Of a stretch of 64,000 bases of DNA, positions 36,353 to 63,645 are shown in pieces. The translations under genes were made by a program, and so were the position numbers. The stretch lies in NCBI GenBank assembly GCA_026874595.1, contig CM049313.1, positions 25,168,008 to 25,232,007 of the forward strand. The letters are read 5' to 3'. Each line of letters starts with the position of its first letter. The first letter of the stretch is position 1. The notes under the pieces are model-generated. The model saw nothing but the letters and a program-made list of their open reading frames with translations, made no database searches and was not told the origin of the DNA. This DNA comes from Sipunculus nudus (lineage: Eukaryota > Annelida > Sipuncula > Golfingiida > Sipunculidae).

Positions 36353-36353
<1 letters not shown>

Positions 36354-36400
<47 letters not shown>
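36354..36400. repeat. (TA)n microsatellite
   Basis: About 23 uninterrupted TA units. Confidence 0.95.
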
Positions 36401-36403
<3 letters not shown>

Positions 36404-36940: not shown

Positions 36941-37079
36941 CTGGAACCCCGGATATGTATCAACAGTTTCTTATTTATTATATTGATCATCCAAAAGACA
37001 ATTGTTTAATTTTTTTATGAAAAAAATCAATAAAAAATATAACTGTGAATATATGCACGTGAAATATAACACGGAATTT

Positions 37080-37335: not shown

Positions 37336-38070
37336 ATGGACGGACGTGTCAGGCGGGGCTGCTCCATGCGTGGCTCTCCCGACGTTCATCAGATCGTTTT
37401 CCTTATAGATTTAAAGATACTTGACATAAACATCAAGTCACAAAACTGTGACCAGATCGTATCTCAGGTATCGAGGACAGTTTTAAAGATACTAACTCAC
37501 TATGCAGCTGTCGTGGAAACGGGACAGAACCTGCGGTGGGGTTTCAAGTTCTGCAATTCATGCTCTACCAGCAGAAAAAGTCAGCAGGATTTTAGGGAAT
37601 TTTCAATAAAAACCTATGAAAGCTTCGAGCAAAATCTTCAGGCCAGAGTGCTCTCAGATTACCGTGATCGGATGTGTGCTGGTCAGACTAACATCAGGGG
37701 TGGGAGGTCGGATTCTGAGGACACTGAGCCGGGTTGTCAAGGGTTACAACGTGCACTGTCAGAAGTAATGTCTGACTTCCAGTGGGAAAGGCCAGACATC
37801 CGATCTCCAGTCCGACCACATATGCGCAAAAATCAACACATCGGACCACTTGGTTTGGAGCCATCAAATAAAAACTTGATATATCTGTTTTCCTGGTGCC
37901 CTGATACACCAGAAGCGTTTGGGTCATTTTTTGGCTGTGATACACCTTGTGCAGCAGAGAGTCTGGAAGCTCTCTTGCCCCGGAGACTTCTGCGACAGTT
38001 TCGTGAAATCCACAAGTTGGCTCTATACTGGATAGATATGAAGGATAGAACGTCTGACGTCCTCGTCTCG
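37336..38070 (+). CDS. TICRR: TICRR exon 1 (residues 1-245)
   Basis: Starts at ATG 37336 (A at -3, G at +4); an in-frame TAA at 37309 limits the start. A second ATG (residue 11, 37366) could be used instead, since homology begins only at about residue 18 (HQIVFLID). The early hydrophobic strand plus the WGFKF and DFRE segments fit the vWA-like N-terminal domain predicted for Treslin. The donor is GTTTGT at 38071 (phase 0), and the open frame stops 10 nt further on. Confidence 0.9.
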
Positions 38071-41000
38071 GTTTGTATTTAAAGGGACATAATTAGGAGC
38101 AATATTATACCTATTCTTTCACAGTATCAGTTCAGTTTTGCTTAAGACAAAAGTTTCCCAGCAAAACCACCCAACACACAGTCTCAGTACCTCGTATACG
38201 GCTGTTTTAACACCTTGTTATGGGTCTGCGTGTTGGTAAACACAGTCAACGTGTCTGTTTATGATAACAAGGCCGCGTGACCAGAGGTCCAATTGTGAGC
38301 CTGAACAGGTGGTGTTTCAGCCAGCGGAAACATGTATTACATTTTTTTGGTTTTAAAAGTCAGTCAAGGTAAATCCTGATTGACATGTTGTGGCCGGGCA
38401 ATGCAGGCGCTGTGTTTATGTTGACACCTTTGATCGCACCCGGTCCACTGTTTTTACCATTTGTTTACAGAAAAAAGCAAACGGTTTAATGGCAATATTT
38501 TGGCAGGTACAAATTTATTTAAAAGGGAAGAATCTATTTTTCATGTTTATTCAACATGCTTTATTGGGGGTTGGGCCCCTTTAATCCTTTTCAGGCTGTT
38601 CCCACTGGTTCAGTTCTCAAAAAAAGGTTTAACATTTTTCTTGCATAGGACATTGTTCCTGAAATAAGATTTCCCCATTAAATTTATTAAATTCACAGTT
38701 CTTGATATTAAGCCTTGCTATATCTGTTGGAATCTCTGCACAATGAAAGTTTCTGTTGTGTGAATTTCAGCCACCAGTGATTAGGACAAGTCCAGACCTG
38801 AGTCCTGCTTTTTCAGAGACTCTGACTTAGACTTGATGGTCCTGGCCTTGACTAGTCTTGTACTTGAACTTGGAGGTCAAGACAGGAGAAATCAGATGAA
38901 GTCCACCTTGAGTCCAATTATTGTGAAAGAAAAACTCTCAAATGGTGTCAGATTCAGAGTCGGACTGGAAAGTTCAGTTAATTACATATGTGAACTATTG
39001 ACATAATATTAAAAAAAAAACAGAATGCACAAAGCTAGATCTATGGCTTCTTAGCAATTTTAGCTAAATTAGAAACAAATGATACATAAAAAACCCACAT
39101 TTAAACAAACATAAAAACATTACAACCTTTAATTTTGATTTTTATATTGCTCTTTAGCTCAGCTGACTATAAGTCATCTGAGCTATAGTCGTGGTCCTTC
39201 GTCCGTCCAGCCGGCCGTCCGTTAACAGGGCACGTTTTAAAACTGTTTGACCTATGAATCCAAAATTTTGCATTCCATTAGATGTCCCCAAAATCTCCTA
39301 CCTTGGCAAAAATTGGGTCATTAGGACTTCGTTCGATATTAAGGAAAAACCTCCGTTTTCCATAAAAAGCCATTGTTACACTTCAAGGCTGCCTAATATC
39401 AAAACCACTGATCTGTTTTTGATCATATTTAGTATTCATATTCTTCCATACATTTTCTATGAAAATTTCCAAAAATTAGGTCAGTATTGGGTATTATTTT
39501 GAAGTTATGGGCCCAAATATAATGCAATTTTAAAAAATCAGGAAATATATTTACTCACCTAACATGAGAATTGCTGAAGCTGGAGACTTTTTTTGTTAGG
39601 AATATAACTTTATTTACTCAAGATTCAATTGTTTACCCAAAATTAGATCTGAATTTTGCAAATTTTTCAAGTTATTAGCTTAAATAAAAAATCAATACTT
39701 TAAATTTTGTCCAACTTTGGCAATGGCACGTTTTTTCCCTGTAAGCACTGTTGATTTTGTTTTCACAGCATATATATACATAATGATTTAATCTTTTAAA
39801 ATCTGAAATATCAAAGGAATTGATTGAAAAGAGTAGCTTTTATTCAAGTTTTCATACACCATGTCAAGTGTTGTTTACATCTAGCCCACCTAGTAACACA
39901 GCCTTCACTTGCATTATGTAACCCACCCCAGGCAGCTTGCCTTGGCTCAGCTTGGCCACTACTTGCAGGCTTCCCCTCTGCCCTGCACCCCCCCCCCCCC
40001 AGATGGTGCATTAACTAGATGAATGTTATAATTTTCTGTATTTTATTCTTGGCTATGCTACATTTTAGATTTTGTATTGTACCACCAGGGTTACAATGAT
40101 TAAAGTGCACATTTAATTGTGTCCACAAAGTGGTGTTTTGCTATGAAAGTGTGGATGTTTATCAGATAAGTAATTCCTTGCTTCAGAAGAGTAAAAACTT
40201 CACCAGGTGTGAAATTGACTATTAATTCCAGTAATAAATTATAGCTGAGATAGTAATTAGCACAATGATATTGTTTGTCCCTCATTCAACCAACAGTGTG
40301 TATATTTTATTTGAAAAGATGTTTTTATTCTATCAAATTTACTGAATCTTTTATTTTATTTCGGTGAATAAAATTAAGCATGTACTGAAAACTCCAATGT
40401 GCAAAACTTTTAAATAGTTATTCAAGGAATAATCTTGTAGATGCCATGTTGTGGCATTATTTTTTTTTTAAATTCAGTTTAAACATTTGTGATTTAAAAA
40501 TAATAAAATATGTGTATGCATAATATGACCCAATATGAGCTACACTCTGGATATATAATGATTGCAACTTAGAATTCTAATATTTTAACTTATATTTTAA
40601 GTTTTTTTTATTACAAATTTATAAAACTTGTAAATAAAGAAAAATGAATCAGATAAAAACTATTAATGGAAAAAGTGGATATGCTAAAAAAATAGGCTTA
40701 TATATAAACTTAAATGCATTATTCCCTTGAAAGTGAAACAAAGGTATTAGTCCATTCTGTCCACATGCCTGTCCATCTGTAAATTTTTCATATGCATCAC
40801 AGTATCTCCAAACTTTTACTATTTTTCTTCATGACAGTCTTGTCAGAGTATAAGTTTGCAATCATATATTTAGAACTTTAATATAACCAAGTAGAAGGGC
40901 CCCTTTCCTCTTAGGTTCTCATATGCTTATATAAATGAAAAACATTTCAATAGAATATTTTGCATATTTTGCATTTGCAAAAATTTCAAACTTTAGCTGA

Positions 41001-44000
41001 GCGCCGTGACCCATGGGTCCCTTGTTTTTATGAGTGATCAGTAGACACGCTGTAGAAAGGGCAAGCATACTTCAAACCAGTTATCTTTGTGGGAATTTTT
41101 AATGTAGAGTTCAACTGAGTGACATTTAGAATTCATGATAGTGGACATTCTCTAAATGATCTGGTCTGGACCAGTGTAGCACTCTCGTGTTGAAATATCT
41201 TTGCCATGTAGATCCATTGTGAAAGACACCACATTTTATTATTTTGACACTGTTCCTCTTTTAAGCCTGGATCATTGCATTAAATGCACTATGAACATAC
41301 TGATGAACAGGATAGTGCACTTGGACACAATGGAAATGAATAGATCAAGCTGCTTTTCAAACAAGTTTGTAGTTTGTTTGAATCTGTGTAATTATCTTTT
41401 TGTTGAATCATCATAAACATTTTATAAACATGTACCTACATTTCAAAATATATTATAGACTGTACACTTACTAAATAATACTAATCTATGGGTCACTTTA
41501 CTTCTAGCTGAATAGTTCATTACAGAGGTAATGTGAAAGCAATGTCTAATTTCAAGTGGAAACTTTTGTGCTTTATCATTTCAGTCATGTTCACCAGACC
41601 TGCCGTGTGTCAGGCTGTTGTCTCAGATGCTCTGCTCCCTGAGTGGCTGTATTCTGCCAATCCAGGCAGTGCTGCATCTTGGTCTGCAGTATGACACCTA
41701 CATCCACAGCCCTCCAGCACAGTTAGGTGTGACAGCAGATACAGTGGCTGCTAGCAGACAGTTCAGTTCCTTACTGCCGTTCTCCAGTGTCATAAGTACT
41801 TATGCAGAGCCATCTGTCATCATGTGCCAAGAAACTACAGCAAATAGGACGACTCTTTTCCTGGATAATGGTATGACAAATTAATTTAGTGTGATATGGT
41901 GCTGCTATGCTGCATAAAATTCAGTTTTGCAAGTCCTGACATTTTCTCAAGCAGTCATCCTGGATTTTACCAGTCATATCTTGAAATATTAATGATAAAG
42001 CATACTTGAGGAGTGTTTTTATATTTAGTCAAAGTTACCTTGATCATACAAAAAGTTTAGAATCAGTTTAGGCATGTTTACTTGTGTTTGGCAAATTACA
42101 GTAAGCTCCACTTATTAAAACAATTTATAAATAAATAACATAATGACTAAACTCCTGGCATTTTTATACATACATTTTTATGGAAATTTTTGTATAAATA
42201 AAGCATTTGTAATTTATGATCATTTCACAACTAAAGAAACCCTGTAGCCATATATGCGTGACTCAGTAGGCATTTAAATCAGACTGGGAAGTCTACTTGA
42301 GTTGAAACACAGGTCATGGGGGGGGGGGGGGGGGGATGTACTGCAACACCCATCCATCCTATTGCATCTGTAATACTGTATACATGTGGTAAAAAGTCAG
42401 CAATCTTAACATTAGGCTACAAGTGATGAATTAACACTAAAGAATACATAAAAGCTCACAAACCAGATTTAGTAAATCCATCTGTTAAATCTAGCCCTGT
42501 GGTAAGAACTCATTTCCTGTGTCACATAGTTGTTGGGAAACTTGTGCAAGGAATGCTTGAAATCATGCAGTCAGAAATTCAACAAACATGCAGGGGGGTT
42601 AACTGATATGCTGAGTTATAGTGGAATTTTTCTCACAGATGGTAGATGTAGTTGAGAGTATGCAGACATATGTTAAGATTGTTATTTCTTTCAGTTACAG
42701 TGTACCAATAGTCTGTGAGATAAAAAATATTTGCATCCTCATCAAGCCTTACTGTGCCGCTCTGATCATTACTGAGTGTAGCACTCTGACATCTTGACAA
42801 TTATGTCACAGAATGAATAAAGGGGGAATCATTTAATTGAATATGAACTTATCAGTGGTACCTTTGGTCAAGTTTTTGGCAAGCACAAATACATAAAAAT
42901 TCATATAGTCCTGACCCACACTGACTAGCATTTTAGTCCACACCACCCTGTCCTGTAGTCCTGACCCACACCATCCTGTCCTGAAGTCCTGACCAACACT
43001 GACTATCGTTTAGTCCATACCACCCTGTCCTGTTGTCCTAACCCAGACTGACTAGCCTTTAGTCCACACCATCCTGTCCTGTAGTCCTGATCCACACTGA
43101 CTAGCCTTTAGTCCACACCTTCCTGTCCTGTTGTCCTGATCCACACTGACTAGCCTTTAGTCCACACCTTCCTGTCCTGTTGTCCTGATCCACACTGACT
43201 GGCCTTTAGTCCACACCATCCTGTCCTGTAGTCCTGATCCACACTGACTAGCCTTTAGTCCACACCATCCTGTCCTGTAGTCCTGATCCACACTGACTAG
43301 CCTTTAGTCCACACCATCCTGTCCTGTACTCCTGTCCTGTAGGTATGCCTGTAAAAGCCAGCAGTGTAGGACCTAAATCTACATCAGGTGCAGGGGTCTG
43401 TTTAAGTTTATTTACTTAATTGTTTCTCCATGTCAACAGCAGATGCAGTGAACTTTAGCTGTTGGACTGACTGATGAATTATATCTATATTTACAGATGA
43501 TTGTGACCAGGTGTTAGACTGACTGATGAATTATATCTATATTTACAGATGATTGTGACCAGGTGTTGAGTCATCTGTACCTGTACAACATCACAAAATA
43601 CCAAGGCATAGCACCTGACAGGTTAGTGTCATCATGTAATCATGTAAGGCATCATGTCATGCGATTTTGGAGTCATATCAAGGGGCCATGTCATTATCTG
43701 TGTGAGGGCCTTCTCAGTAATAAATGCCTGGATTGACTTTTCATGTTGATCTTAAAAACCTTTTGAGGATCAGATTAATGGCTCCACCTTTGCTTGTATT
43801 AGATTAATGGCTCCACATTTTCTGTTTCATGATTATAAAAATGTAATTTTACAGCAGAACTGAAATAGTGCTCCTCAATAAGATTGATGTCCCTGTCATC
43901 ATGCAGTCGGAATAAACATGGGGAAACCATTTCTTCAGAAATATTTTCCTTTGCTGAACCTAATAACCTCTGCATTGCTTTTCATTTGATTAATATATAG

Positions 44001-45730: not shown

Positions 45731-45805
<75 letters not shown>

Positions 45806-48800: not shown

Positions 48801-51800
48801 ATAACTTAAATACAACTTCATGTCAAGCAGACTCACTAAAATCTGTTCAACAAATATTGCTGTCTGTTACCCTAAGTAAATGAGAAATTCCTAACATTAT
48901 TGAAGTAACCCAATGTGGTTCATGTTTCCTGTCCATGGCCTAGCAATAAACTGACCCAGAATTTTTATTCAGCCAAGCCACTGCTTCACTCAGAAACTTG
49001 GTGTACAGGTTCATGTGACTGTGTAGTGTGTACTCGCATCCTGTTCATCAAGATGTAATTTCTAACAAAGCTTGATTTAAACTGGACTTATAAAGTTAAC
49101 ATTGAAAAGCCAATATGGATTTGTATGGTAAATGGAGTTTCAGCAGAGCTTGTTCTGGTGAGTACCAGTATTTAAAACAGAGACAGACAGTCACTGACTA
49201 ATGACATGGCAGGCCTGCTTGTGCACAAAGCCATGTGCTGTTGTTTATACACATCATGGCTGCTAACTGATTGGCTCCTGCCGTGGCTGTGCACCTCCCC
49301 CGCTAAATTTAAACTGGGACTGGCATGGACACTCATAATTTATTTTCCTGCAGACACCACATAAACTGACCTAGAAATGATAATTTATTTCAGTTACTTG
49401 CAGTATCAGGAACATGTCTGCAAAAATCAAGCTCTGGTAACATCTTCCTTCCCAGCTAATATTCAGATTACAGTCAGAGCCCAAGTGAACAGTTGCAGGT
49501 ATTATGTTAAACTCCATGTTGCCCAGTAACGCCCCCTGGTATTTATAGTGGCACTCGGTCTTTAAATCTAGGAAGGTCCTTAGGGAAATCTACATGGAAA
49601 TCTAAAATGATGTCACAGTAACCTATATTGTGCAAGCTATGGTGTAAAAATATATTTACCACTCTGTCTCAGTATTTAAGGTGGATGAATAAAGATTTTG
49701 CAGTGGATTTTTATATGAAAATAATGTGCCTCATTTACTTGGACTGTGTGATATTATTGATTAATTGGTATATCGCGATACAGTGATTTGCATATTGTGT
49801 ATCCTAATACAGTTTCTAAATATCAATATATTTGATATTTTGTTACATGTACCTAAAAATGAAATTTTGAAAGAAAAATTTAGTTTCTGTTACAAATTAG
49901 ATATATTAATGTGTCAGATGAATGACAGGCTTAAAGTGAAAGCTGCTGCCATGTCTTTAGATGTGTTGGAGGAAATGTTCAAGTGTTCAAGTAGGCCTGA
50001 TATATCACGGATGAAAGGTGCGTCCCAGGAAATTTGCATGTCTGTGTGGTGACTTATTGGTATATGAGAAATATTTCCATAAAACAAAAGAAAGGAGTGC
50101 TGAACACATTCTTAATAATTAATCATTCATTAAAAATCTCTCCTCACATCCTAAGTTAACACTACTATTGTTTAAGAACAGCAGCCTTGCGATATGGTAC
50201 AGGACCGTGGCTGTAAACACCACCTGTTCCACTCTATGCAAAACCACTCTCCATAAGTCACTAATTGCTTTGATTTTAGAGGTTTCTTTGAGTCTTTACC
50301 AAGTACATTAGTAAGTGATATTGTTATATATTTTGTGTTTAAAATACACTAATCTGCATAAATGTTTGTTGTCTCATTATATATAACATGATAATGAATG
50401 GTAAATCATAATAAAATAAATAATTAAATTATATAATATAGAAAACACACTAATTTCCTAAAAATTTTGTACAATGAAAATATTGAAATATGTATCGCTA
50501 TACGTTACAACATATCACAATTTTTCCCTATACGAAAAAAGTAGGCAATACCCAGCCCTATCATCTGCACCTCAAAGACTATCAGCATACAGTGTTTGAA
50601 CACAATTAGATCAATGTTTTTGAGGTATCAGGGGCCACTGATTGCAATATTTGATTATATTATGTATGTGCATACAGACTTAGTGTCATGTTTGTGTCCA
50701 GTTTCTCAAGAACAGCTGCAACTATCAACTTTTACAGGAATATTGTTCAAATGACATATATGTATGTAAGCTGTTGGTGTAGCCACCTGTTGTTGACATG
50801 TTTTCTGCAGGCCAGATTGATTTATTCAATTTTTGCCAGGTAAAACAAAACATATGATATTTCAGGTTTCACAAGGTCATGTGACATAGACTGAAGCCAT
50901 ATTCAGTTTGTAAAGTATTTTGTGGTAATTTAACTGAATGCTTAGCATTTGAAGTGATATCTGCATCTGCCATTAATACTAGTTCCCTCCTACCCAAACT
51001 GATTATACCTTTTCACCACAGAGGGAGAATTTTAGTTTGAGTTTTAACTGTAGTTCATCTCATGTTTTGTTAATATAGACTCTGTTATCTATGGACAGTG
51101 TCATGTATAATAAATGGTATACAGGTATATATTTAATTGTGAACATTTTTTGTCATCAGCGGTAGATTTGCCACCACAGAAAAATGACCCGCCGCACCAC
51201 TTTGCCAGTGTAGCACCGTTCCATTCTGCTTCACTTGAAGAGTTTTATCAACAAGGAATCACAAGCCCAGCTGTGGATGAACTGTCAGCCCTCGTCCAAA
51301 TCAAGTAGGCCATGTTTATAGCTCTATTCACATCAAGTAGGCCATGATTCTAACTCTGTCCAAATCAAGTAGGCCGTGTTTATAGCTCCATTCACATCAA
51401 GTAGGCCATGTTTATAGCTCCATTCACATCAAGTAGGCCATGTTTCTAGCTCTGTCCAAATCAAGTAGGCCGTGTCTATAGCTCCATTCACATCAAGTAG
51501 GCCATGTTTCTAGCTCTGTCCAAATCAAGTAGGCCATGTTTCTAACTTAGTCCACCTAATGTTTCTAACTATGTACACTTCAAATAGGCAATGTTTCTAA
51601 TTCTGTCCACATCAAGCATGCAATGTTTCCTAGCTCTGCCTACATCAAGTATCCCATGTTTCTCACTCTGTTCACATCAAGTATGCCATGTGTAGCACCA
51701 TACCATTATTGTTTCTAACTCTGTCAGCATCAGGTAAGCCAGGTTTCTAACTGTACACATCACATATTCCATGTATCTAGCTCTGTCCACATCAAGTATC

Positions 51801-54800
51801 CCATGTTTCTCGCTCTGTTCACATCAAGTATGCCATGTGTAGCACCATACCATTATTGTTTCTAACTCTGTCAACATCAGGTAAGCCAGGTTTCTAACTG
51901 TACACATCACATATTCCATGTATCTAGCTCTGCCTACATCAAGTATCCCATGTTTCTCGCTCTGTTCACATCAAGTATGCCATGTGTAGCACCATACCAT
52001 TATTGTTTCTAACTCTGTCAACATCAGGTAAGCCAGGTTTCTAACTGTACATATCACATATTCCATGTATCTAGCTCTGTCCACATCAAGTAGGCCATGT
52101 TTCTAACTCTGTCTGTACATCATTTATGCCATGTTTCTAGCTCTGTATACATCACATATGCCATATTTCTAGCTCTGTCTACATCATGTATGCCATGTTT
52201 CTAACTCCATCCACATCAAGTAGGCCATGTTTCTAGCTCTGTCTACATCAATTAGGTCATGTTTCTAGCTCTGTCCACAAATAGTAGCCATGTTTATAGC
52301 TCCATCCACATCAAGTAGGCGGTGTCTCTAACTTGGTCCACATCATGTTTCTAACAATGTCCACATCAAGTAGGCCATGTTTCTAGCTCTGTCTACATCA
52401 ATTAGGTCATGTTTCTGACTTGATCCACCTCAAGTAGGCCATGTTTCTAACTCTGTCAACATCAAGTAGGCCATGTTTCTAACTTGATCCACCTCAAGTA
52501 GGCCATGTTTCAAGCTTTGTCTACATCATGTATGCCATGTTTCTAGCTCCATCCACATAAAGTAAGTCATGTTACTAAATTGGTCCATGTCATGTTTCTA
52601 ACTATGTCCACATTAAGTAGGCCTTGTTGCTAGCTCTGTCCAAATCAATTAGGCCATGTTTCTAGATCTTTCAACATCAAGTAGGCTATGTTACTAGCAT
52701 TACCCACATCAATTAGGCCATGTTTCTGGCTTCATCCATATCTGGTAGGCCATGATTCTAGTACAGTCCACATCAAGTAGGACATGAATTAGAATTGTGT
52801 ATTTCTTTTCACAGAATATATATGTATACAGAATATTATAATGTTAATTGTGGATTTCCTTCTGGTATATATTCTAGGTATTGATCTCTATTTTTAAGAA
52901 TTTTGTGACTTCTGCTGTAATTTCTCTCTGAAATGCAGTGATAATAATTAAATTAACAGTGGATCTTTGTTGAAGAATTGACATGTTATTTGTTGGCCCA
53001 TCTTTAGCACAGATGTGGCCATGAAAGCCTTGACAGACGAAGAAAAACTCATGAAAAAGTATCAGAGAAGACTGAGAACTAACAAGTCAATAGCTCGGAG
53101 ACCGGTCACGATGCAGCATGACACTTCTAGTGTGGTGGATGATCAGTCTGAACAGGGTAAGTCAGAGTGCTGTATACAAGTTAAATAATACAGTAGGAAA
53201 CCAGAAGATCAATTAGAGGTATTTGGTTATATCCCCACATGAAAATCAGTGGTGAACTTACAAAGGCAAAATTAATATACATTGTTTTATGTTTATCTTC
53301 ATCCAAATTAAAGACCCAGCACCATGTACCAGTAAATAACTGGACAACTAAACCACTGTAAATTGCATGTCTGCAGCTTATTTCAGTTTCATTTACCAGT
53401 AAAACGGTTTTTGTTTCTGATGCAGTGCCTTTTTGTTAAGTTTATTTTTTTTCATCAACAGAAAATGTTCCTAAAGAAACGGCAATTTTGCCAAGAACTA
53501 GAAGCAAGACACTTCTGCCCTCAAGAAATGATATGATCATTGAGCGAAGCCGTCATTACCAGACCCAGGTGCAGGACAAACCTCCCAAAGAGGATGCTAC
53601 AAGGGTCTCCGATGTCACAGTCCAAGAGCCCCGAAGTGGACTCCCAACAGAGAGTGCAGGTCGTGTTTATATACATATGTTGCAATGTGTTAAATGGATT
53701 AAGAACTGTATGTCAAAATAATTGGTATAAAAATGTTGTGGTTATTTCTTTTCAATAAGAAATATGTTTGGCACAGATGCTTTGTTTCGTCAAGTTGTTT
53801 GCTACCTCATATTTTGCTTATGTTTGTTTATGACTGCTAAGGTGTTTATTTGCTGTCTTTTAGTAAAACAAAAGATGTTGCTGATATTGTGCTTATGTGC
53901 TCAAGATATGCGGAGCTACTAATAGTTTCATATATATGAAGAAGTCACTTTCAAACAGTATAATGATATTTTAGTTTATGCACACTATTGTATCATTTGC
54001 AAATCTTTGGTAAAAAAGGTGTGGCCATGGTGACAAGGATAATTTTTCTCTCTAAAGTGATGTTATTAATATAAAACTCAGAACCAGAGTGTATAGCTGG
54101 TTCCTTCATATATTTCTTTAGATTTAACTTGATTGTTTGCTGGTTCCTGCGTATATTTCTTTAGATTTAACTTGATTGTTTGCTGGTTCCTGCGTATATT
54201 TCTTTAGATTTAACTTGATTGTTTGCTGGTTCCTTCATATATTTCTTTAGATTTAACTTGATTGTTTGCTGGTTCCTGCGTATATTTCTTTTGATTTAAC
54301 TTGATTGTTTGCTGGTTCCTTCGTATATTTCTTTAGATTTAACTTGATTGTTTGCTGGTTCCTTCATATATTTCTTTAGATTTAACTTGATTGTTTGCTG
54401 GTTCCTGCGTATATTTCTTTTGATTTAACTTGATTGTTTGCTGGTTCCTGCGTATATTTCTTTTGATTTAACTTGATTGTTTGCTGGTTCCTTCATGTAT
54501 TTCTTTAGATTTAACTTGATTGTTTGCTGGTTCCTGCGTATATTTCTTTAGATTTAACTTGATTGTTTGCTGGTTCCTGCGTATATTTCTTTTGATTTAA
54601 CTTGATTGTTTGCTGGTTCCTTCATATATTTCTTTAGATTTAACTTGATTGTTTGCTGGTTCCTGCGTATATTTCTTTTGATTTAACTTGATTGTTTGCT
54701 GGTTCCTTCATATATTTCTTTAGATTTAACTTGATTGTTTGCTGGTTCCTGCGTATATTTCTTTTGATTTAACTTGATTGTTTGCTGGTTCCTGCATATA

Positions 54801-57800
54801 TTTCTTTAGATTTAACTTGATTGTTTGCTGGTTCCTTCATATATTTCTTTAGATTTAACTTGATTGTTTGCTGGTTCCTGTGTATATTTCTTTAGATTTA
54901 ACTTGATTGTTTGCTGGTTCCTGCGTATATTTCTTTTGATTTAACTTGATTGTTTGCTGGTTCCTGCGTATATTTCTTTTGATTTAACTTGATTGTTTGC
55001 TGGTTCCTTCATATATTTCTTTAGATTTAACTTGATTGTTTGCTGGTTCCTGCGTATATTTCTTTTGATTTAACTTGATTGTTTGCTGGTTCCTTCGTAT
55101 ATTTCTTTAGATTTAACTTGATTGTTTGCTGGTTCCTTCATATATTTCTTTAGATTTAACTTGATTGTTTGCTGGTTCCTGCGTATATTTCTTTTGATTT
55201 AACTTGATTGTTTGCTGGTTCCTGCGTATGTTTCTTTTGATTTAACTTGATTGTTTGCTGGTTCCTTCATATATTTCTTTAGATTTAACTTGATTGTTTG
55301 CTGGTTCCTGCGTATATTTCTTTAGATTTAACTTGATTGTTTGCTGGTTCCTGCGTATATTTCTTTTGATTTAACTTGATTGTTTGCTGGTTCCTGTGTA
55401 TATTTCTTTAGATTTAACTTGATTGTTTGCTGGTTCCTGCGTATATTTCTTTAGATTTAACTTGATTGTTTGCTGGTTCCTGCGTATATTTCTTTTGATT
55501 TAACTTGATTGTTTGCTGGTTCCTGCGTATATTTCTTTTGATTTAACTTGATTGTTTGCTGGTTCCTGCGTATATTTCTTTTGATTTAACTTGATTGTTT
55601 GCTGGTTCCTGCGTATATTTCTTTTGATTTAACTTGATTGTTTGCTGGTTCCTGCGTATATTTCTTTTGATTTAACTTGATTGTTTGCTGGTTCCTGCGT
55701 ATATTTCTTTTGATTTAACTTGATTGTTTGCTGGTTCCTGCGTATATTTCTTTTGATTTAACTTGATTGTTTGCTGGTTCCTGCGTATATTTCTTTTGAT
55801 TTAACTTGATTGTTTGCTGGTTCCTGCGTATATTTCTTTTGATTTAACTTGATTGTTTGCTGGTTCCTGCGTATATTTCTTTAGATTTAACTTGATTGTT
55901 TGCTGGTTCCTGCGTATATTTCCTTAGATTTAACTTGATTGTTTGCTGGTTCCTGCGTATATTTCCTTAGATTTAACTTGATTGTTTGCTGGTTCCTGCG
56001 TATATTTCTTTAGATTTAACTTGATTGTTTGCTGGTTCCTGCGTATATTTCTTTAGATTTAACTTGATTGTTTGGAAGGTTCCTGCGTATATTTCCTTAG
56101 ATTTAACTTGATTGTTTGCTGGTTCTTGCGTATATTTCTTTTGATTTAACTTGATTGTTTGCTGGTTCCTGCGTATATTTCTTTAGATTTAACTTGATTG
56201 TTTGCTGGTTCCTGCGTATATTTCTTTTGATTTAACTTGATTGTTTGCTGGTTCCTGCGTATATTTCTTTTGATTTAACTTGATTGTTTGCTGGTTCCTG
56301 CGTATATTTCTTTTGATTTAACTTGATTGTTTGCTGGTTCCTGCGTATATTTCTTTAGATTTAACTTGATTGTTTGGAAGGTTCCTGCGTATATTTCCTT
56401 AGATTTAACTTGATTGTTTGCTGGTTCTTGCGTATATTTCTTTTGATTTAACTTGATTGATTAACTGGTTCCTGCGTATATTTCTTTAGATTTTCAGCTC
56501 AGCTGACTATAAGTCAACTGAGCTATAGTCATGGTCCATTGTCCGTTGTCCGTCCAACCGTCCGTGTGTCCTCCTGTTAGACTGGCATGTTTTGAAACCA
56601 TTAGACCTACGAATCCAAAATTAGGCTACTGTTAGATGTCCCCAAAATCTCCTTCCATGCCGAAAATTGGGTCAATATGACTTCATTCCTTCGAGATATT
56701 TAGAAAAAACCTCAAATTTTCAATAAAAACCTATTATCACACTTCAGGACTGCCTAATATCAAAACCACTTTTCTGTTTATCTTAATATTTACCAGAAGT
56801 AATCTCCTATATATTTCCTATATACATGCCAGAAATTAAGTCCGTTAAGTATAATTTCTCTAAGTTATGGGCCCAAACATAATGGACTTTGTAAAAAAAT
56901 CAGGAAAAATATTTACTCACTTAACATGAAAAATTTTGAAACAAGAGACTATTTTCCCAAGTGTATAACTTTGTTTAATTTAGATTCAATTGTTTACCCA
57001 AAATTAGATCTGAATTTTGTAAATTTTTTAAGTTTAATAATAAAAATAAAAATCTGTACCTTACATTTTGCCCAACTTTGACCATGGCATGTTTTTTTCC
57101 TGTAAGTACTATTGATTTAATTTTTCACAGCATGTAAACATAAGTATTTTATTTGTTTAAATCTGAAATTTGAAAATAAAAGCTGGAAAATTTGGCAAGC
57201 TATTGATTTTTTTCTTGAGGCTCTATTGTAGTCAGTTGCTTTGTCCAGATGCAGGGTCCCACTCCAGGTCACTGGAAGTCAGCTATGCAAGGGTTTCTGA
57301 TTTGTTACAGTCACTGGGGGAGATCCCCAGCTGTGACAGGTGTACAGTTATTCTCATATCACCACCCCAATCCCCCCCCCCCCCCCCAAACCCAACCCAC
57401 CAAGTGTTCTGCAGTAAATGTTATTGTCTCCACTCCAATATACAAAAACTTTACTTGAAAAAGTAATTGGAGATGTAATCCAGAAGATGCCATGTTGTTT
57501 TAATGTAGCATTTTTAAAGAAATCAATTTTCTTTTAAATGATTTTAACAAATATAATTTAACCCATCAGTATACTCAAGTGTATAAAATATGAAGCAAAT
57601 TATGGATAAATATAGGCACAATTTAAAATTGTTAAATCTGAATCAAGTATTATATTTAGATATTTATTGTTTTGCAAATTTATTTTTGTGGTAAAAAATA
57701 AATAAACATTTGTAAGCATAATGTAGTGTTGTCTGACAAGATTGAGACTTATGATGATGCAATTTAGAATTATGAATCAACTTTTATATTCAGATATATA

Positions 57801-60800
57801 TGTCATATTGGAAATGTTTGGATTTAAACTTGTAATAAAAAATTGATATGATATAAAAACGAGGATCTAATACAAACATTTGTTAATTATTTTCCTGCCT
57901 CAGCAGAATTGGAGATCAGGCCATGTATATGTGTGCAGATGTGTTGTTAATCCCACCATCCCCCCCCCCCCACCCTACCATTGATTCCTGTGCACTGGGA
58001 CATTAGTTTTTATTGCAAATGTATAAAATTTATTTAATTAAAAAAATCATAGGATAAGAAAAAATTAAGATCTTATTGAAACATATTCTTGCCTTAGGAG
58101 AATAGAACATAAAGTGATCAGCTCTGTCCATCATCTCTCCTTTATCATTAAATATATATTAATTATGAAATTTTCCTATATATAAGCACTATTGAAATAA
58201 CTTTCATATGCTGTATGTGTTTTGAATTAAGCTATTAAAGTCTGAAATTTGAAAGCAAATTATATATTCAGTTGTGTATTATTGCAGATGTAAAACTTTA
58301 AAAAAAAATTGGTATAATAAAAAATTAGGAAATAATTGAAACTTCATATATTATCAGCCTTGTTTGTCTCCCAGTCTGTCTGTCCTTTTTTAAGTATTAA
58401 GTTATTTGGAATGAACTCTTTTATCCTGTAAGCATTGTTGAATTAATTGTAAATCCTATGTATATACACTATAATAATACAGATATATTGTAACTCCCAC
58501 CATTCCACTCCCAGCCACCAAGTCCTTTCATCTGTGGACTGTGGACATTAGTTATATTTCAACTGTATACATTTCATAAAATAAAAAAATACATATATTT
58601 AATAATATATATTTAAAAAAAATAGATTCAATTGAACAAATGTGTAAACTACTGAAATGTCAACAGTTAATCAAAAAGCCAACTAATGATCATGGTAATA
58701 GTACAGATCATTTGTTCACAAACTGCTCACATGCTTCAGTTTCAACATTAGGAAACACATGGTCAGGTCACAAAATATTATTTGCAACAATTTCTTGCAC
58801 ATCAATATAAACCAATCATATAAACCAACCATGGCCTTTATTACCTCTTCCTCTTACACTTTATCTCCATTTGATATTATTTTAGATTTTTACCTTCAAG
58901 GTCAACTTCAGCTTAGCACAGTGACCCATGAGTCTCTTGTTCTGAACTTGTTTAGATGGTTCCTGCATATATTTATTTAGATTTAACTGAGCTTGTTTAG
59001 CTGGTTTGTGTGTATATTTCTTTAGATTTAACTGAGATTGTTTAGCTGGTATCTGCGGATATTTCCTCAGATTTCCAGGATGAGGATGAGTTGCTTCATC
59101 ACCTCAAGGAGTCGTACATGTCTGGAGTTGATGGTGAGACTCTGACTCTGCCGTGTGCACAAACCATCATCGGTGTAACACTACACTACTACAAAGCCAA
59201 ACAAGTCCAGTCTCCAAATGTAAGTTACTGCATTTTTCCCACAATCTTACCCATTCTTTTAACCTGTTTGCCACATTTAAAGCAATCCTGAAAGGGGATA
59301 GATAGCATCTTGTATTCATTTAAAACCTGCATCATGCCCACTAATATTTCTTGCCCCAGATAGTTTAAATAAAAATGAGTTTGACTGTGTCATCAGGACT
59401 GCTTTTTTTTACACATTAAAAAAAATGAACATTGCAGTTATCATTTTCATATCAAAACTGTTAGCATACCTTAAAACATTCTTTTTATAGTGTTCTCAAT
59501 ATATTTTACAATTAAATTAATCAAAATGATAAATGGTTAGCATTGGGTCAGTGAACCCTTGTAAGATGACAGTCCTTACATACTCATCATTATTTTATTT
59601 ATATTTGCTCATAGAAGTTTATATGTAGACACTGAATTACGTTAGTCCTTTATTTTCTCATGGCACTTTCATAATTTCAGGAATTGGTTGCTGGACTTTT
59701 GTCAAAAAACATGTTCCTTAGCAATAAAGGCATCCATGACAAGTATGTTGGAATGGAGGGACCTGAGGCGCTGGAGAAAAAATTAAGAGAGTAGGTACAC
59801 CCCCCTGGTATGCTGTCGTAATGAGACGGTGTGTGTCTCACAAATAAGTTGTCGTAATGAGACGGTATGTGTCTCACAAATAAGTTGTCGTAATGAGACG
59901 GTATGTGTCTCACAAATAAGTTGTCGTAATGAGACGGTATGTGTCTCACAAATAAGTTGTCGTAATGAGACGGTATGTGTCTCACAAATAAGTTGTCGTA
60001 ATGAGACGGTATGTGTCTCACAAATAAGTTGTTGTAATGAGACGGTATGTGTCTCACAAATAAGTTGTCGTAATGAGACGGTATGTGTCTCACAAATAAG
60101 TTGTCGTAATGAGACGGTATGTGTCTCACAAATAAGTTGTCGTAATGAGACGGTATGTGTCTCACAAATAAGTTGTTCCAACCAAGGAGTGCCCATTTTA
60201 ATGAGGTAATTTCACCGCTATCATTTCAAAACTTTCTCCTTAAAACACACCACATAAATTAAAACGTTTGAGAGCAATTGCCTATGTTCATCAGGCACAT
60301 GGAGCAGACTATAGGTCCTTCCTCATCTAATTGTATCGAACAGAAAGGAAATAATCCCTGTGTGATCATTGTCTTGACTGGGGCTCAGGTGTGGAATTGA
60401 GTCCACTTTTTCAGGGATTCACACTGGGACTATAGACACGGTGGCCCTGCACTGTAACTTGGACTCTGAGTTTAGGACTCAAAAATTCTGGAAGATTCCA
60501 GCTATAAGAAATAAAAAAAAGTATAAAAAAAAGCTTTGTCACATTATTTCTTGTTTACATATTGGAAAACACACCACAAACATGTATATAGTATACATGT
60601 GTTGCTGTAATAGAATATTACGAAAATTAGACATTCTGCCGCATGTTTTATACTTTATTTTCATGTAGACTTACCTTTTCAGTATTTGTCATCGGGTAGG
60701 GAGATCCAAATAATTATTTATAAGTTATACAAATTACATGATTTAAGAGAACAAACTTTAGATGAAGCAGATTTTTTTTATTAGTGTTTTATTTGTTGTT

Positions 60801-63645
60801 GGAATATTTTTTTTATTAAAAATAATATTTATTTATGGACTTGGACTCTGATTCAATTCCCAAAAGACTCAAACTAGAAGAAGGTGGACTTGGAGTTGAG
60901 TGAATTGGGCTAGAACTCAGAAAAAAAGGTGGATTTGGAGTTGAGTGGATTGGGCTTGGAAAGTGGACTTGGAGTTGAGTGAATTGGGCTGGGACTCAGA
61001 CTAGAAGGTGGACTTGGAGTTGAGTGAATTGGGCTTGGACTCAGACAAGAAGGTGGACTTGGAGTTGAGTGAATTGGGCTAGGGCTAGATCACAGACAAG
61101 AAGGTGGACTTGGACTTGAGTGGATTGGGCTGGGACTCAGAATAGAAGATGGACTTGGAGTTGAGTGGAATGGGCTTGGACTCAGACTAGAAGGTGGACT
61201 TGGACTTGAATGAATTGGGCTGGGACTCAGACTAGAAGGTGGACTTGGAGTTGAGTGGATTTGGCTGGGACTCAGACTAGAAGGTGGACTTGGACTTGAG
61301 TGGATTGGGCTGGGACTCAGACTAGAAGATGGACTTGGAGTTGAGTGGAATGGGCTGGGACTCAGACTAGAAGGTGGACTTGGAGTTGAGTGAATTGGGT
61401 TGGAACTCAGACTAGAAAAAGGTGGACTTGGAGTTGAATGGATTGGGCTGGGACTCAGACTAGAAGATAGACTTGGAGTTAAGTGGAATGGGCTGGGACT
61501 CAGACTAGAAGGTGGACTTGGACTTGAATGAATTAGGCTGGGACTCAGACTAGAAGAAGGTTGACTTGGAGTTGAGTGAATTGGGTTGGAACTCAGACTA
61601 GAAGAAGGTGGACTTGCACTTGAGTGGATTTGGCTGGGACTCAAGTAAATTGAACCAGGACTTCACGTGGGACCTGGACAATGTGGACTGGACAACAATA
61701 CTGACCTTATCTCTTAAATATAAACCTCCAAATTGCAAGTAAATAATTGTGTATATATGGTTGAATGATAATGATATTAAGGTGATATGGCATAATTTAC
61801 CTGACTTGTTGTTTTTTTCCAAATTTGGGTCATGTACAGTTATTCAGTTGAAAAAGTGACCATTTGGTAATTTACCATTATGAATTTATTTTGCTTTCAG
61901 GTATGATATCCAGATTCTGTTAGGATTGGAACTTGCAGTAATACAGGAAGTTGAGGGGATTCAAATGGATGAAGAAAAAATTGAGCAGGTTGGCAGAATG
62001 TTTTTTGTCATCAAACTGCATTGGCTAGACAAAGATTAAATTTATGGATGTTGAGCATAAGGGGACTTAAGTTCTAAATCTGTTACAGGAGTATTTATGA
62101 TTCTTACCTTGTCAGTGTAAAATATAGTTCAATGTTTGTGCGTCCTTTTAACTGATTCTGAGTAGAGCTTTACTATTAGCAGCCCAACAGAGGTCCCAGG
62201 TATCAGTATGAGAATGACAAGGTTATATTTTAAAACTGTTAGTGCTATTTTATTTAATTGACCAGTATCTGGTCATATGGTTCAAGTTCAGTATGTCATT
62301 TGTTAGGCACAGAATACAAGATGATATCATGTTTATATCTTTATGGTCACAGGGAATAAAATAAACTAAAAACATAGCTTACTACTGTAAATAACAGGCC
62401 GTGAATCTTTATTACCATACCGGCATAATTTGTTTTATGATATGTTCCTCTATTATACTAAAAATCTCAAGTATCATTCAATACCTTACAGTTGCATTAT
62501 TTTGAATAGATGTGAGAATTTAAAACTAAAATAAAGGAAATATATATGTATGTACTTGTCATTGTAAAGGTTTCCTTTATAGCATTTCCCTAGGCATTAT
62601 TTGATAAATCTGTTGTATATTCTTATTACAATTAAATTAAATTTGATATTGATTGCTTTTTTCAGAAATCAGTATCTAGCCTTTATCTCTTATTTTCTGG
62701 GCAAGTCTGTACTTAGTCTCATGTTTTCAGATCATGTCTTTCCCTGGTTCCTAATTTAAAGAGCATACCTATCTTTGATCCCTTGCCTTCAAAACATGTC
62801 TATTATTATTATTTTCTTCAGGATTTGTCTATCCTTGGTCTTTTGTTTTCAGATTGTAATGATGCTGAGGTCTTTGTCTTTTCTCAAAGATGCCAGCTAC
62901 TTGGCAGATTATCTGAAGTATGTACTTGTGGAGAAGTAAGTACAGAATCATTGTTGTTTTAAAATAGATGCAGATATGTAATAGGTACAAATTAGCATTT
63001 AATTACATGAGTGAAAACTGGGATTATGGGGATTTAGGGACTCGGGAAGCACCCCTTGCTTAGTGAAGTTCCTGTGCATTAGTTGCAGTGATTGCATTAG
63101 TTGCAGTGATTTTACACAGCCTGTTTCCCTTGTGTTGTCTTACAGTAGAAGTTGTTTTTTTTCTAAAAGCATTGGGGAACAAGCATTCCATTCTGAAAAA
63201 AAAATATAGTTTGGATATATGATTAGGGTCTTTGTGGAGTTTATCATACAAATAATGGTACTTGGGTACAATGGTACTTGAGTATAATGGTACTTGAGTA
63301 TAATGATGATGGTACAGTATATTCAAATTAAATGAAAAGTAGGTATTATATCCTGATTAATCATCAGGTATTTATAAATTCATGTTCACAATGATAGATA
63401 TCCTTCATACCTGGTTTATTAATATTTAAAATGAAAATACAATGTTTCAGTTACTTGCTGACTGTTCCCAAGATTCTTGGTCAGATCTATGATGAGCTGC
63501 TACAACCACTGCCGGAGGCACTGTCTGAGGTACTGTCACCAGCAGGAGGAGAAGCTGACAGCTCAGCAGTCCCATCTGTCACTGCGGCTCCATCTGTCGA
63601 GTCTGACTTGATGTCTTTTGAACCACCATCAAGCAGGGCACCACG
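37336..63645 (+). CDS. TICRR: TICRR/Treslin orthologue, 13 coding exons in window, 3' end missing
   Basis: Treslin (Sld3 counterpart) works with MTBP and TopBP1 to load CDC45 on MCM2-7 when S-CDK is active, so it sets the number and timing of replication origins fired in the nucleus. Thirteen exons splice in consistent phase to about 905 codons. Exon 1 matches the vertebrate N-terminal Treslin domain in order ([37 protein letters not shown]). Exon 5 carries GVLQPLS and exon 9 opens with DFQDEDELL, close to human DFKTEEELL. Exons 9-13 form the Sld3-Treslin domain (about residues 698-860), ending in a Ser/Pro/Ala-rich stretch. The long disordered C-terminal tail with the CDK sites for TopBP1 binding should lie to the right. 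Introns are unusually rich in tandem arrays that touch splice sites. Identification is by eye from remembered family sequence. Confidence 0.9.
38071..41584 (+). other. TICRR intron 1
   Basis: 3.5-kb intron. It contains a GACTTGGA/GAGTCCAA-rich patch (38790-38950), a hairpin-ended interspersed element (39154-41026) and a poly-C run near 39989. No additional exon is needed by phase. Confidence 0.8.
39154..41026 (+). mobile_element. Interspersed repeat with terminal hairpin, copy 1
   Basis: The left end has CTCAGCTGAC, TATAA, GTCATCTGAG (39158-39182), a near-perfect 10-bp stem, followed by GAGCTATAGTC and a GTCCGTCC-rich stretch. The right end reads TTTAGCTGAGCGCCGTGACC then CATGGGTCCCTTG. Shared internal blocks (ATGTCCCCAAAATCTCC, GCCTAATATCAAAACCACT, TTACCCAAAATTAGATCTGA) are found at 56495-58940. 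No ORF of transposase size is present, so it is non-autonomous. Its class is unclear; a Helitron-like or foldback origin is possible. Confidence 0.65.
41585..41870 (+). CDS. TICRR: TICRR exon 2 (residues 246-341)
   Basis: The acceptor TCATTTCAG joins exon 1 in phase 0. The segment [18 protein letters not shown] then GCILP lines up with a vertebrate stretch that also has SPD, L..G and VLP spacing. The donor is G|GTATGA, phase 1. Confidence 0.85.
42320..42336. repeat. Poly-G run in intron 2
   Basis: About 16 consecutive G in TICRR intron 2. Confidence 0.9.
42906..43341. repeat. Tandem array in intron 2, 48-49-bp unit, about 9 copies
   Basis: The unit CTGATCCACACTGACTAGCC, then TTTAGTCCACACCATCCTGTCCTGTAGTC, repeats with good conservation. 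It ends about 210 bp before exon 3. Confidence 0.9.
43461..43564 (+). repeat. 52-bp tandem duplication spanning the exon 3 acceptor
   Basis: Copies at 43461-43512 and 43513-43564 differ at one base. Each holds the polypyrimidine tract, the AG acceptor (TATATTTACAG) and the first 16 bases of exon 3. Use of the upstream AG (exon from 43497) reads DDCDQVLD and then TGA, so only the downstream AG (exon from 43549) keeps the frame. Confidence 0.9.
43549..43621 (+). CDS. TICRR: TICRR exon 3 (residues 341-365)
   Basis: A 73-nt exon in phase 1 in and phase 2 out, encoding [20 protein letters not shown] and a few more residues. The donor is AG|GTTAGT. It is the only short exon in the first half and is needed to connect exons 2 and 4 in frame. 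Confidence 0.8.
44052..44349 (+). CDS. TICRR: TICRR exon 4 (residues 365-464)
   Basis: Acceptor CCTGTTAG completes an Arg codon. 298 nt, ending in [16 protein letters not shown] before a consensus donor GTAAGT. The middle region of Treslin is the MTBP-binding part in vertebrates. The [10 protein letters not shown] helix matches a leucine-rich helix at the same place in the vertebrate protein. Confidence 0.85.
44951..47405 (+). mobile_element. Interspersed repeat with terminal hairpin, copy 3 (with nested insertions)
   Basis: The left end GCTCAGCTGACTGTTAGTCA then ACTGAGCTATAG (44951) matches copies 1 and 2. The right end AGCTGAGCGTCGAGACCCAT then GGGTCCCT lies at 47370-47403. The outer span (about 2.45 kb) is similar to copy 2. 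A second right-end copy (AGCTGAGCACCATGACCCAC) follows at 47431, so two elements may be overlapped or nested. Limits are inferred from the ends only. Confidence 0.45.
45636..45860. mobile_element. MITE fragment with TA-tract expansion
   Basis: CAGGGGCGTAGCCAG at 45636-45650 is a typical MITE terminal repeat, followed by G/C-rich sequence and a (TA)n tract of about 66 bp (45734-45800). No matching inverted terminus CTGGCTACGCCCCTG was found on the right, so the copy is truncated or rearranged. Confidence 0.45.
47655..47862 (+). CDS. TICRR: TICRR exon 5 (residues 465-534)
   Basis: Acceptor TTTACAG, phase 0. The stretch [20 protein letters not shown] closely follows a vertebrate motif (IxGVISPLS..AxILT) and is one of the clearest anchors of the identification. 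The donor is G|GTCAGT, phase 1. Confidence 0.9.
47863..51159 (+). other. TICRR intron 5
   Basis: 3.3-kb AT-rich intron. A partial hairpin end (GCTCAGCTGACTGAAAGTTA, about 48125) marks a further fragment of the interspersed family. Frames at 48549-48836 (-) and 49765-50052 (+) are open but not bounded by usable phase-matched splice sites. Confidence 0.7.
51160..51304 (+). CDS. TICRR: TICRR exon 6 (residues 534-582)
   Basis: Acceptor TGTCATCAG, phase 1. It encodes a proline-rich start ([13 protein letters not shown]) and [14 protein letters not shown]. The donor CAA|GTAGGC at 51305 is weak; phase 2 output joins exon 7 exactly (AA|C, Asn). The last 11 exon bases and first 7 intron bases are repeated verbatim inside the following intron array. 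Confidence 0.85.
51294..52800. repeat. Intron 6 array built on the exon 6/5' splice-site junction, about 31-32-bp unit
   Basis: The unit ACATCAAGTAGGCCATGTTT, then CTAGCTCTGTCC, repeats about 45 times with growing divergence. The 18-base junction GTCCAAATCAAGTAGGCC (51294-51311) recurs exactly at 51358, 51454 and 51518. A 147-bp higher-order block occurs three times (landmarks 51690, 51837, 51984). Each block has CAG|GTAAGC (GT at 51734, 51881, 52028), a better donor match than the real one. Confidence 0.9.
53008..53156 (+). CDS. TICRR: TICRR exon 7 (residues 582-632)
   Basis: Acceptor CATCTTTAG, phase 2. It encodes a basic helical stretch ([20 protein letters not shown]). The donor G|GTAAGT is a full consensus. 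Confidence 0.85.
53462..53659 (+). CDS. TICRR: TICRR exon 8 (residues 632-698)
   Basis: Acceptor CATCAACAG, phase 1. It contains [14 protein letters not shown], near a PRTP..K-type basic segment in the vertebrate protein. The donor G|GTCGTG is weak but phase-correct for exon 9. The frame stays open into the intron, so the exact end relies on phase. Confidence 0.75.
54093..56492. repeat. 43-bp tandem array in intron 8, about 56 copies, acceptor-like unit
   Basis: The unit TATATTTCTTTAGATTTAAC, then TTGATTGTTTGCTGGTTCCTGCG, is nearly identical between copies. Main variants are CTTTAG versus CTTTTG, and TTCATAT versus TGCGTAT. Units with CTTTAG resemble a 3' splice site: a pyrimidine-rich stretch, AG, and a TTTAAC branch-like motif about 35 nt earlier in the preceding unit. 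Confidence 0.95.
56495..58940 (+). mobile_element. Interspersed repeat with terminal hairpin, copy 2, inserted in the 43-bp array
   Basis: The left end CAGCTCAGCTGACTATAAGT then CAACTGAGCTATAGTC follows directly on an array unit. The right end AGCTTAGCACAGTGACCCAT then GAGTCTCTTG is followed again by array-type units. Internal blocks match copy 1 in intron 1. Poly-C runs occur at 57373 and 57961. No transposase-like ORF. Confidence 0.65.
58942..59070 (+). repeat. Diverged array units forming the exon 9 acceptor
   Basis: Three degenerate copies of the 43-bp unit (TATATTTATTTAGATTTAAC, TATATTTCTTTAGATTTAAC, GATATTTCCTCAGATTTCCA) precede exon 9. The last one supplies its pyrimidine tract and AG (59069-59070). 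Confidence 0.8.
59071..59219 (+). CDS. TICRR: TICRR exon 9 (residues 698-747), start of Sld3-Treslin domain
   Basis: Acceptor TTTCCTCAG, phase 1, completing Asp. It opens with [16 protein letters not shown], which matches the start of the vertebrate STD (DFKTEEELL..IRENY) residue by residue. This domain is the conserved core shared with fungal Sld3 and contacts CDC45. Donor GTAAGT, phase 0. A second AG at 59077-59078 would break the frame. Confidence 0.9.
59681..59790 (+). CDS. TICRR: TICRR exon 10 (residues 748-784)
   Basis: Acceptor ATAATTTCAG, phase 0. It encodes [18 protein letters not shown] and EALEKKLRE, the helical middle of the STD. The donor AGA|GTAGGT is suboptimal, phase 2. A hairpin array begins 22 nt beyond it. 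Confidence 0.85.
59813..60176. repeat. 36-bp hairpin array in intron 10, 10 copies
   Basis: Each unit holds TGAGAC, loop GGTATGT, GTCTCA (a perfect 6-bp stem), plus CAAATAAGTTGTCGTAA. Copies are almost identical. Since 36 is a multiple of three, several frames stay open through it (126 codons +, 162 and 137 codons -), all simple 12-residue periods with no gene support. Confidence 0.95.
60838..61665. repeat. 45-bp tandem array in intron 10, about 17 copies
   Basis: The unit GGTGGACTTGGAGTTGAGTG, then AATTGGGCTGGGACTCAGACTAGAA, repeats with small indels of three bases. The period is a multiple of three, so a 184-codon minus frame of PSPPSSLSP periodicity results. It is intronic and repeat-derived, not a supported gene. 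Confidence 0.95.
61901..61988 (+). CDS. TICRR: TICRR exon 11 (residues 784-813)
   Basis: Acceptor TTGCTTTCAG, phase 2. [20 protein letters not shown] parallels the vertebrate CQLQVFLRLE helix of the STD. The donor CAG|GTTGGC, phase 0. Confidence 0.88.
62853..62935 (+). CDS. TICRR: TICRR exon 12 (residues 814-841)
   Basis: Acceptor TTTTGTTTTCAG, phase 0. It encodes [20 protein letters not shown], matching the vertebrate DLLRMV...SAYLAEFLEE helix pair. Donor GAA|GTAAGT-type, phase 2. Confidence 0.88.
63451..63645 (+). CDS. TICRR: TICRR exon 13 (residues 841-906), last certain exon
   Basis: Acceptor AATGTTTCAG, phase 2. [20 protein letters not shown] ends the STD (vertebrate counterpart IPKTLGNLYNSLG). 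After that a Ser/Pro/Ala-rich, low-order stretch begins. The donor ACG|GTGAGA is strong, phase 2. The following exon should start with one base completing an Arg-type codon. Confidence 0.88.

What the first reader, a model, noticed from the sequence alone, without database searches (positions are those of the whole stretch)
37336..63645. Tandem arrays repeatedly seeded on splice sites of one replication gene
In TICRR, the exon 3 acceptor is duplicated, the exon 6 donor is copied across a 1.5-kb array, about 56 acceptor-like units sit before exon 9, and GGTATGT loops fill the start of intron 10. Four independent repeat families, each with different sequence and period, all present splice-site look-alikes next to weak or ordinary real sites. 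Either slippage favours these junctions here, or the arrays act as splice-factor decoys that tune splicing of a dosage-limiting origin-firing factor. The pattern is seen; the function is conjecture.
Basis: partly seen in the sequence, partly recalled or inferred. Interest (0 to 1): 0.72.

Follow-up and report, generated by a model that had tools for sequence, protein, structure and literature searches.

The report
Splice-junction minisatellites in the TICRR gene
In this animal's TICRR gene, short DNA stretches straddling exon-intron borders were copied over and over into the neighbouring introns; the same happens at borders of unrelated genes in the same genome and resembles the "mirages" known from lancelets, so it looks like ordinary repeat growth and not a special switch for this gene.

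Summary
The gene is TICRR/treslin (13 exons in the window, 905 aa open). Three of four claimed junction copies are real: a 52-bp two-copy duplication over the exon 3 acceptor, a 32-bp array starting 11 bp inside exon 6, and a 43-bp array reaching the exon 9 acceptor (split by a 2.45-kb interspersed element). The 36-bp array in intron 10 starts 23 bp behind its donor but is not a copy of it. Controls change the meaning. In myosin, CCT and kinesin exons of the same genome, 7 of 374 called junctions are spanned by such arrays, some holding copies of about 26-39 bp of exon. Array cover falls from 4.8% at 200 bp into introns to 1.9% at the junction, so junctions are not favoured. TICRR exceeds the control rate (3 of 24, p 0.018, post hoc) but also carries more array in its introns. 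Inner splice-site copies often match or exceed the real sites in strength, yet are not conserved. Best reading: short tandem duplications across junctions, tolerated while the exon-proximal site is used, then grown as minisatellites, like lancelet "mirages". A regulatory decoy role is untested and unlikely.

The parts
37336..63645 (+). TICRR/treslin gene, exons 1-13 (gene appears to continue beyond the window): 37336-38070, 41585-41870, 43549-43621, 44052-44349, 47655-47862, 51160-51304, 53008-53156, 53462-53659, 59071-59219, 59681-59790, 61901-61988, 62853-62935, 63451-63645
   Evidence: 905-aa uninterrupted reading frame over 13 hand-placed exons with GT/AG borders; Pfam Treslin_STD 2.6e-24, Treslin_N 1.5e-17, and Treslin_M 0.033, which is below its cut-off
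43460..43567 (+). 52-bp tandem duplication (2 copies) spanning the exon 3 acceptor, 19 bp into the exon; use of the upstream acceptor gives a stop 8 codons later
   Evidence: TGTT(G/A) at the unit borders suggests microhomology (read from the sequence printed)
51294..52786 (+). array with 32-bp basic unit; its first unit contains the real exon 6 donor (51304|51305); of 41 further units in register 30 keep GT, of which 15 are identical to the real donor and 5 score higher (3 are CAG|GTAAGC); reading through the real donor meets TAG at once
   Evidence: unit found only at this locus by the genome search
54096..56493 (+). 43-bp array, about 56 units, each resembling the exon 9 acceptor region; 29 of 55 aligned units keep AG
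   Evidence: unit found only here by the genome search
56491..58946 (+). interspersed element inserted into the array; related copy at 39153-39815 (77% over 691 bp)
58948..59074 (+). junction-side units (45 bp, 2.8 copies, 84% alike) running 4 bp into exon 9, the last holding the real acceptor (59070|59071)
59814..60176 (+). 36-bp array (10 copies, 99% alike), each unit with a short inverted repeat, 23 bp behind the exon 10 donor; not a copy of that donor
42938..43341 (+). 49-bp array in intron 2; unit not similar to the exon 3 acceptor
60879..61643 (+). 45-bp array in intron 10; unit not similar to the exon 11 acceptor

Best explanation
The arrays are junction minisatellites ('mirages' in the lancelet literature). 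A short tandem duplication, probably by slippage or template switching at microhomology, happened to span an exon-intron border. It was tolerated because splicing at the exon-proximal copy still gives the normal mRNA, so the extra exon fragment and splice site became intron. The array then grew and homogenised on the intron side only. In TICRR three stages can be seen: a two-copy duplication (exon 3), a diverged array (exon 6) and a large, homogenised, element-interrupted array (exon 9). Shown: anatomy, junction copying, recurrence in unrelated genes, no excess of cover at junctions, no consistent conservation of the inner sites. Inferred: the duplication mechanism, near-neutrality, and that the exon-proximal site is the one used.
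For: Junction copies at 3 of the 24 junctions of the 12 complete introns. The same structure at 7 of 374 called control junctions in myosin, CCT and kinesin genes, 5 donors and 2 acceptors. In locus L021 the units hold copies, partly decayed, of the first 26 bp or so of a coding exon, which gives the direction exon to array there. Array cover by distance: 0 of 374 at 40 and 60 bp inside exons, 7 of 374 at the junction, 18 of 372 at +200 bp: a gradient without a junction peak. Exon 6 and exon 9 units were found only at their own locus, so probably born in place. Five large arrays also lie in the left 37 kb of the window. Inner splice letters are not consistently conserved. Published lancelet cases are reported not to disturb splicing (PMC3087553 section 16; PMC3902484 one passage).
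Against: TICRR has more spanned junctions than the control rate (3 of 24 against 7 of 374, p 0.018; P of 3 or more at that rate 0.011). In controls array ends within 30 bp of a junction are 9 against 6.0 expected, a slight excess. All 32 intact inner acceptors before exon 9 score higher than the real one (6.0 or more against 5.9), so how the real one is chosen is not explained. In control L035 the inner GT is kept in 14 of 14 units. No RNA data; control exon edges were called from domain matches and splice-site weights, not transcripts. For exons 6 and 9 the exonic share is short (11 and 4 bp), so direction is not proven there.
Confidence: 0.8

Rival explanations
1. The arrays are splice-site decoys kept by selection: inner sites compete with the real ones, produce stop-containing transcripts and so set TICRR dose.
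For: Inner sites are strong (20 of 30 intact inner donors behind exon 6 score at least as high as the real one, 32 of 32 intact inner acceptors before exon 9 score higher). Use of an inner site hits a stop at once (exon 6), within 3-6 codons (exon 9, 32 of 32) or after 8 codons (exon 3). Elsewhere, repeats in introns are linked to splicing choice: CeRep25B in C. elegans (PMC4039745, passages), TERT intron 6 repeats (PMC3948165, start of abstract in the listing), and human repeats at exon-intron boundaries (PMC2812944, passages).
Against: Inner splice letters are not consistently conserved; 26 of 55 exon 9 units lost the AG, whose A is the most variable column of the unit (possibly one change spread by homogenisation). 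Arrays of the same kind occur in myosin, CCT and kinesin genes. Lancelet cases are reported not to disturb splicing.
Confidence: 0.05
2. Exon-intron junctions are mutational hot spots for tandem duplication in this genome.
For: Array ends within 30 bp of control junctions: 9 against 6.0 expected; TICRR excess by uniform placement.
Against: The control excess is small; array cover at junctions (1.9%) is below that at +160 to +350 bp in introns (4.0-4.8%). TICRR shows a similar relation: 12.5% of junctions against about 24% of intron bases (by hand).
Confidence: 0.12
3. The arrays are the central repeats of a mobile element family (Helentron-like, as in oysters) that landed next to exons.
For: Dispersed array-bearing Helentrons are known in oyster (PMC7492417 abstract).
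Against: Exon 6 and exon 9 units matched nowhere else in the 1.43-Gb genome (the tool scores only its best candidates) and contain the local junction sequence. The intron 10 unit could not be searched.
Confidence: 0.03

Closest known systems
'Mirages' of lancelets (Adh3, globins BflGb6 and BflGb9, troponin C; similar repeats in PGBD5)
   Same: [quoted passage not shown] many but not all units keep splice signals; core units homogenised, border units not
   Different: Probably a mollusc and not a lancelet; other genes; about 56 units in one array, which an interspersed element interrupts; splicing and length instability not measured here
IFI6 (6-16) minisatellite with multiple splice donor sites (Turri 1995; only its title seen, in reference lists)
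   Same: By its title, repeat units that offer several donor sites
   Different: The title implies that inner donors are available to splicing there; here use is unknown
Intron gain or change by tandem duplication (Zhuo 2007, title only; De Grassi and Ciccarelli 2009, passages; potato RdRp, abstract)
   Same: Tandem duplication that crosses an intron-exon border and carries splice signals
   Different: No new intron was shown here; the arrays lie inside an existing intron

Membership tests
mirage (junction minisatellite) | tandem repeat spans an exon-intron boundary and contains parts of both sides | tested here: met
   exon 3 acceptor, exon 6 donor, exon 9 acceptor; not met for the intron 10 array
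mirage (junction minisatellite) | many, not all, units keep the splice signal | tested here: met
   29 of 55 aligned units (exon 9), 30 of 41 further units (exon 6)
mirage (junction minisatellite) | core units homogenised, border units excluded | tested here: met
   exon 9 array only: core 95% alike, junction-side units 84% alike
mirage (junction minisatellite) | regular splicing not disturbed | not testable with these tools
   no RNA data
mirage (junction minisatellite) | length instability between haplotypes or cells | not testable with these tools
   one assembly only
mirage (junction minisatellite) | host is a lancelet (the only hosts named in the two papers opened) | tested here: inconclusive
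   species not named. Of four muscle myosin exons, three match 3i5f or 1dfk-type chains best in the PDB and one matches Myosin-6 best by 1.6 bits; I recall 3i5f as squid and 1dfk as scallop, which points to a mollusc
Helentron central repeats | same unit and flanks at many loci | tested here: not met
   exon 6 and exon 9 units found only at this locus; intron 10 unit not tested, the search did not complete
intron gain by tandem duplication | intron absent in orthologues | not tested
   no orthologous gene structures on hand
regulatory splice decoy | inner sites conserved or used | tested here: inconclusive
   not consistently conserved; use not testable

The most novel reading that the evidence does not exclude
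The stacked inner sites, many at least as strong by my weights as the real ones, make a share of TICRR transcripts stop-containing, so that array length sets TICRR output and hence origin firing, varying between individuals as the minisatellites change length.
Probability: 0.05. Interest if true: 0.75.

Novelty: new member of a known kind. Interest (0 to 1): 0.38.

Why it matters
The two papers that I opened on junction minisatellites of this name describe lancelets. These cases extend the kind to what is probably a mollusc and give a rough rate: about 2% of the coding junctions sampled in this genome. If the exon-proximal site is used, the spliceosome here must tell it from dozens of equal or stronger copies next to it, which makes such genes natural tests of how splice sites are chosen, and of how introns lengthen or arise.

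Tried and rejected
Splice-likeness as evidence: rejected, because units score within shuffled range. Intron 10 array as donor copy: rejected. Junction hot spot: not supported by the cover gradient. Mobile-element origin: not supported. A genome search with the intron 10 36-bp unit was sent seven times and never answered, so whether it is private is unknown.

The tool calls such lists lower bounds. Of 378 possible edges 374 were called; a strict subset of 325 edges gives 5 spanning and 9 within 30 bp. Two pairs of control loci overlap (L021/L022, L026/L027), so base totals are slightly high. Splice weights are human-like consensus values typed from recall. TICRR rates use the 24 junctions of 12 complete introns; the donor of exon 13 makes 25. 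For exon 6, 42 of the 43 register hits were used, a poor one being left out. In one search the last exon 9 unit and the first L035 unit were left out. The exon 9 stop count used a faulty pattern (5 sites) and was redone (32 sites). The element-head count (12 in 116 loci) included loci from the window itself and was redone (6 of 108 control loci).

Full report
The window lies in an unnamed 1.43-Gb assembly at C8:25168008-25232007. Its right 26 kb hold 13 exons of a treslin/TICRR gene: the exons named in 'parts' join into 905 codons without a stop, and Pfam finds Treslin_STD (2.6e-24) and Treslin_N (1.5e-17). To the left I recognised no gene on reading the sequence (36001-36999 was not read, and no systematic gene search was done).

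The arrays. Tandem Repeats Finder lists large arrays throughout the window. With score at least 100 and period at least 15 there are 13 merged arrays, 7 in the TICRR part and 6 to its left. Three of the TICRR features span junctions. Exon 3: a 52-bp unit in two copies, 51 of 52 identical, from intron 2 to 19 bp inside the exon. Exon 6: an array with a 32-bp basic unit whose first unit holds the last 11 bp of the exon and the real donor. Exon 9: 2.8 copies of a 45-bp unit end 4 bp inside the exon, and beyond a 2.45-kb interspersed element (related copy at 39153-39815) lie about 56 more homogenised 43-bp units. The intron 10 36-bp array only lies near its donor. Local alignment of each unit with 25 junction windows ranks the own junction first for exons 6 and 9, but tenth for intron 10.

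Chance. The units are not more splice-like than their own dinucleotide shuffles. Their position next to exons is unlikely under uniform placement (P 0.0001-0.003 for a tolerance of 25 bp, by the set and overlap chosen; 0.0002-0.01 for a tolerance of 0), but the gene was picked after looking.

Controls in the same genome. Domain searches gave exon matches for myosin head, CCT/TCP1 and kinesin. I fetched 108 loci (270,348 bases) covering 189 exons and called 374 edges. Arrays span 7 and lie within 30 bp of 11. Reading them shows the same thing as in TICRR: a 36-bp array with the exon's last 14 bp and donor in its units (L035), 30-bp units (L034), 61 bp (L023), 35 bp in two copies (L045), an 82-bp acceptor array with copies of about 26 bp of coding exon (L021), 60 bp in a CCT gene (L059). 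L115 spans 35 bp of exon by its coordinates, but its donor call lies 102 bp beyond the domain match, and that of L034 63 bp beyond, so these two edges are less sure; the strict subset leaves 5 of 325 spanning. One myosin cluster has 3 of 8 tested edges within 30 bp of an array. TICRR is therefore not alone.

Preference. Array cover is 0 of 374 at 40 and 60 bp inside exons, 3 of 374 at 20 bp inside, 7 of 374 at the junction, 11 of 374 at +40 and 18 of 372 at +200 bp. Junctions are thus covered less than introns. In TICRR, 3 of 24 junctions (12.5%) are covered against about 24% of intron bases (by hand), a similar though not equal ratio (0.5 against 0.4). Arrays number 0.266 per kb in the TICRR part, 0.161 in the left part of the window and 0.133 in the control loci. 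TICRR exceeds the control rate (Fisher p 0.018 spanning, 0.009 within 30 bp), which I put down mainly to its larger array load and to selection of the example; that is inference.

Decoys. Inner copies are strong: 20 of 30 intact inner donors behind exon 6 score at least as high as the real site and 32 of 32 intact inner acceptors before exon 9 score higher, under recalled human-like weights, and use of the exon 9 ones would bring a stop within 3-6 codons. But the letters are not consistently kept: in the exon 9 array the A of AG is the most variable column (0.53 against a mean of 0.98 over the other columns), in exon 6 the GT columns are near the middle, in L034 below the mean (0.71 against 0.81); in L035 the GT is kept in 14 of 14 but the AG in 11 of 14. 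The exon 9 loss may be one change spread by homogenisation, so it does not by itself show selection against decoys.

Host. No species name is given. Three of four muscle myosin exons match best to PDB chains that I recall as squid and scallop, one by 10 bits over the next group; the fourth matches Myosin-6 best by 1.6 bits. A mollusc is likely, and a lancelet unlikely, but neither is proven.

Known kind. Nine searches of the held papers led to 'mirages': minisatellite-like duplications of intron-exon boundaries in lancelet globin, Adh3 and troponin C genes, with similar repeats in PGBD5, reported not to disturb splicing (PMC3087553, section 16; PMC3902484, one passage). The listing holds three more papers with the word 'mirages', on pines, spruce and fly regulatory modules, which I did not open; one search showed 10 of 241. 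So I cannot say that no case outside lancelets is in print. The TICRR arrays fit this kind in the anatomical features tested; splicing and instability could not be tested.

Conclusion. Three real junction minisatellites, probably of different ages, sit in one gene of an array-rich stretch. Most likely they are tolerated by-products of tandem duplication. The open and interesting question is how the spliceosome picks the exon-proximal site, if it does; only RNA can tell.

Noticed in passing
G000 contigs C61, C62, C66, C72, C73, C75, C89, C99: Nine stop-free GroEL matches (547-aa frames) with the same score on small contigs, which suggests bacterial (symbiont or contaminant) sequences in the assembly.
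   Followed up: no
39153-39815, 44945-44994, 48128, 56491-58946: Interspersed element family in TICRR introns; heads at 39160, 44954, 48128 and 56500 in the window and in 6 of 108 control loci.
   Followed up: partly
59814-60176: 36-bp array, 99% alike, each unit with a 6-bp inverted repeat around GGTATGT; looks recent, origin unknown.
   Followed up: partly
15614-29900: Five large minisatellites (periods 43-59) within about 14 kb, upstream of TICRR.
   Followed up: partly
54096-56493: AG-retaining and AG-less units come in mixed runs along the exon 9 array, which hints at a higher-order pattern of expansion.
   Followed up: partly
L032: A myosin exon with a 48-bp array ending 25 bp before it and a 57-bp array starting 22 bp after it.
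   Followed up: no
C2:44849337-44852248 (L010): Four matches to nearly the same stretch of the myosin head profile in a row, which look like alternative exons of a muscle myosin gene.
   Followed up: no
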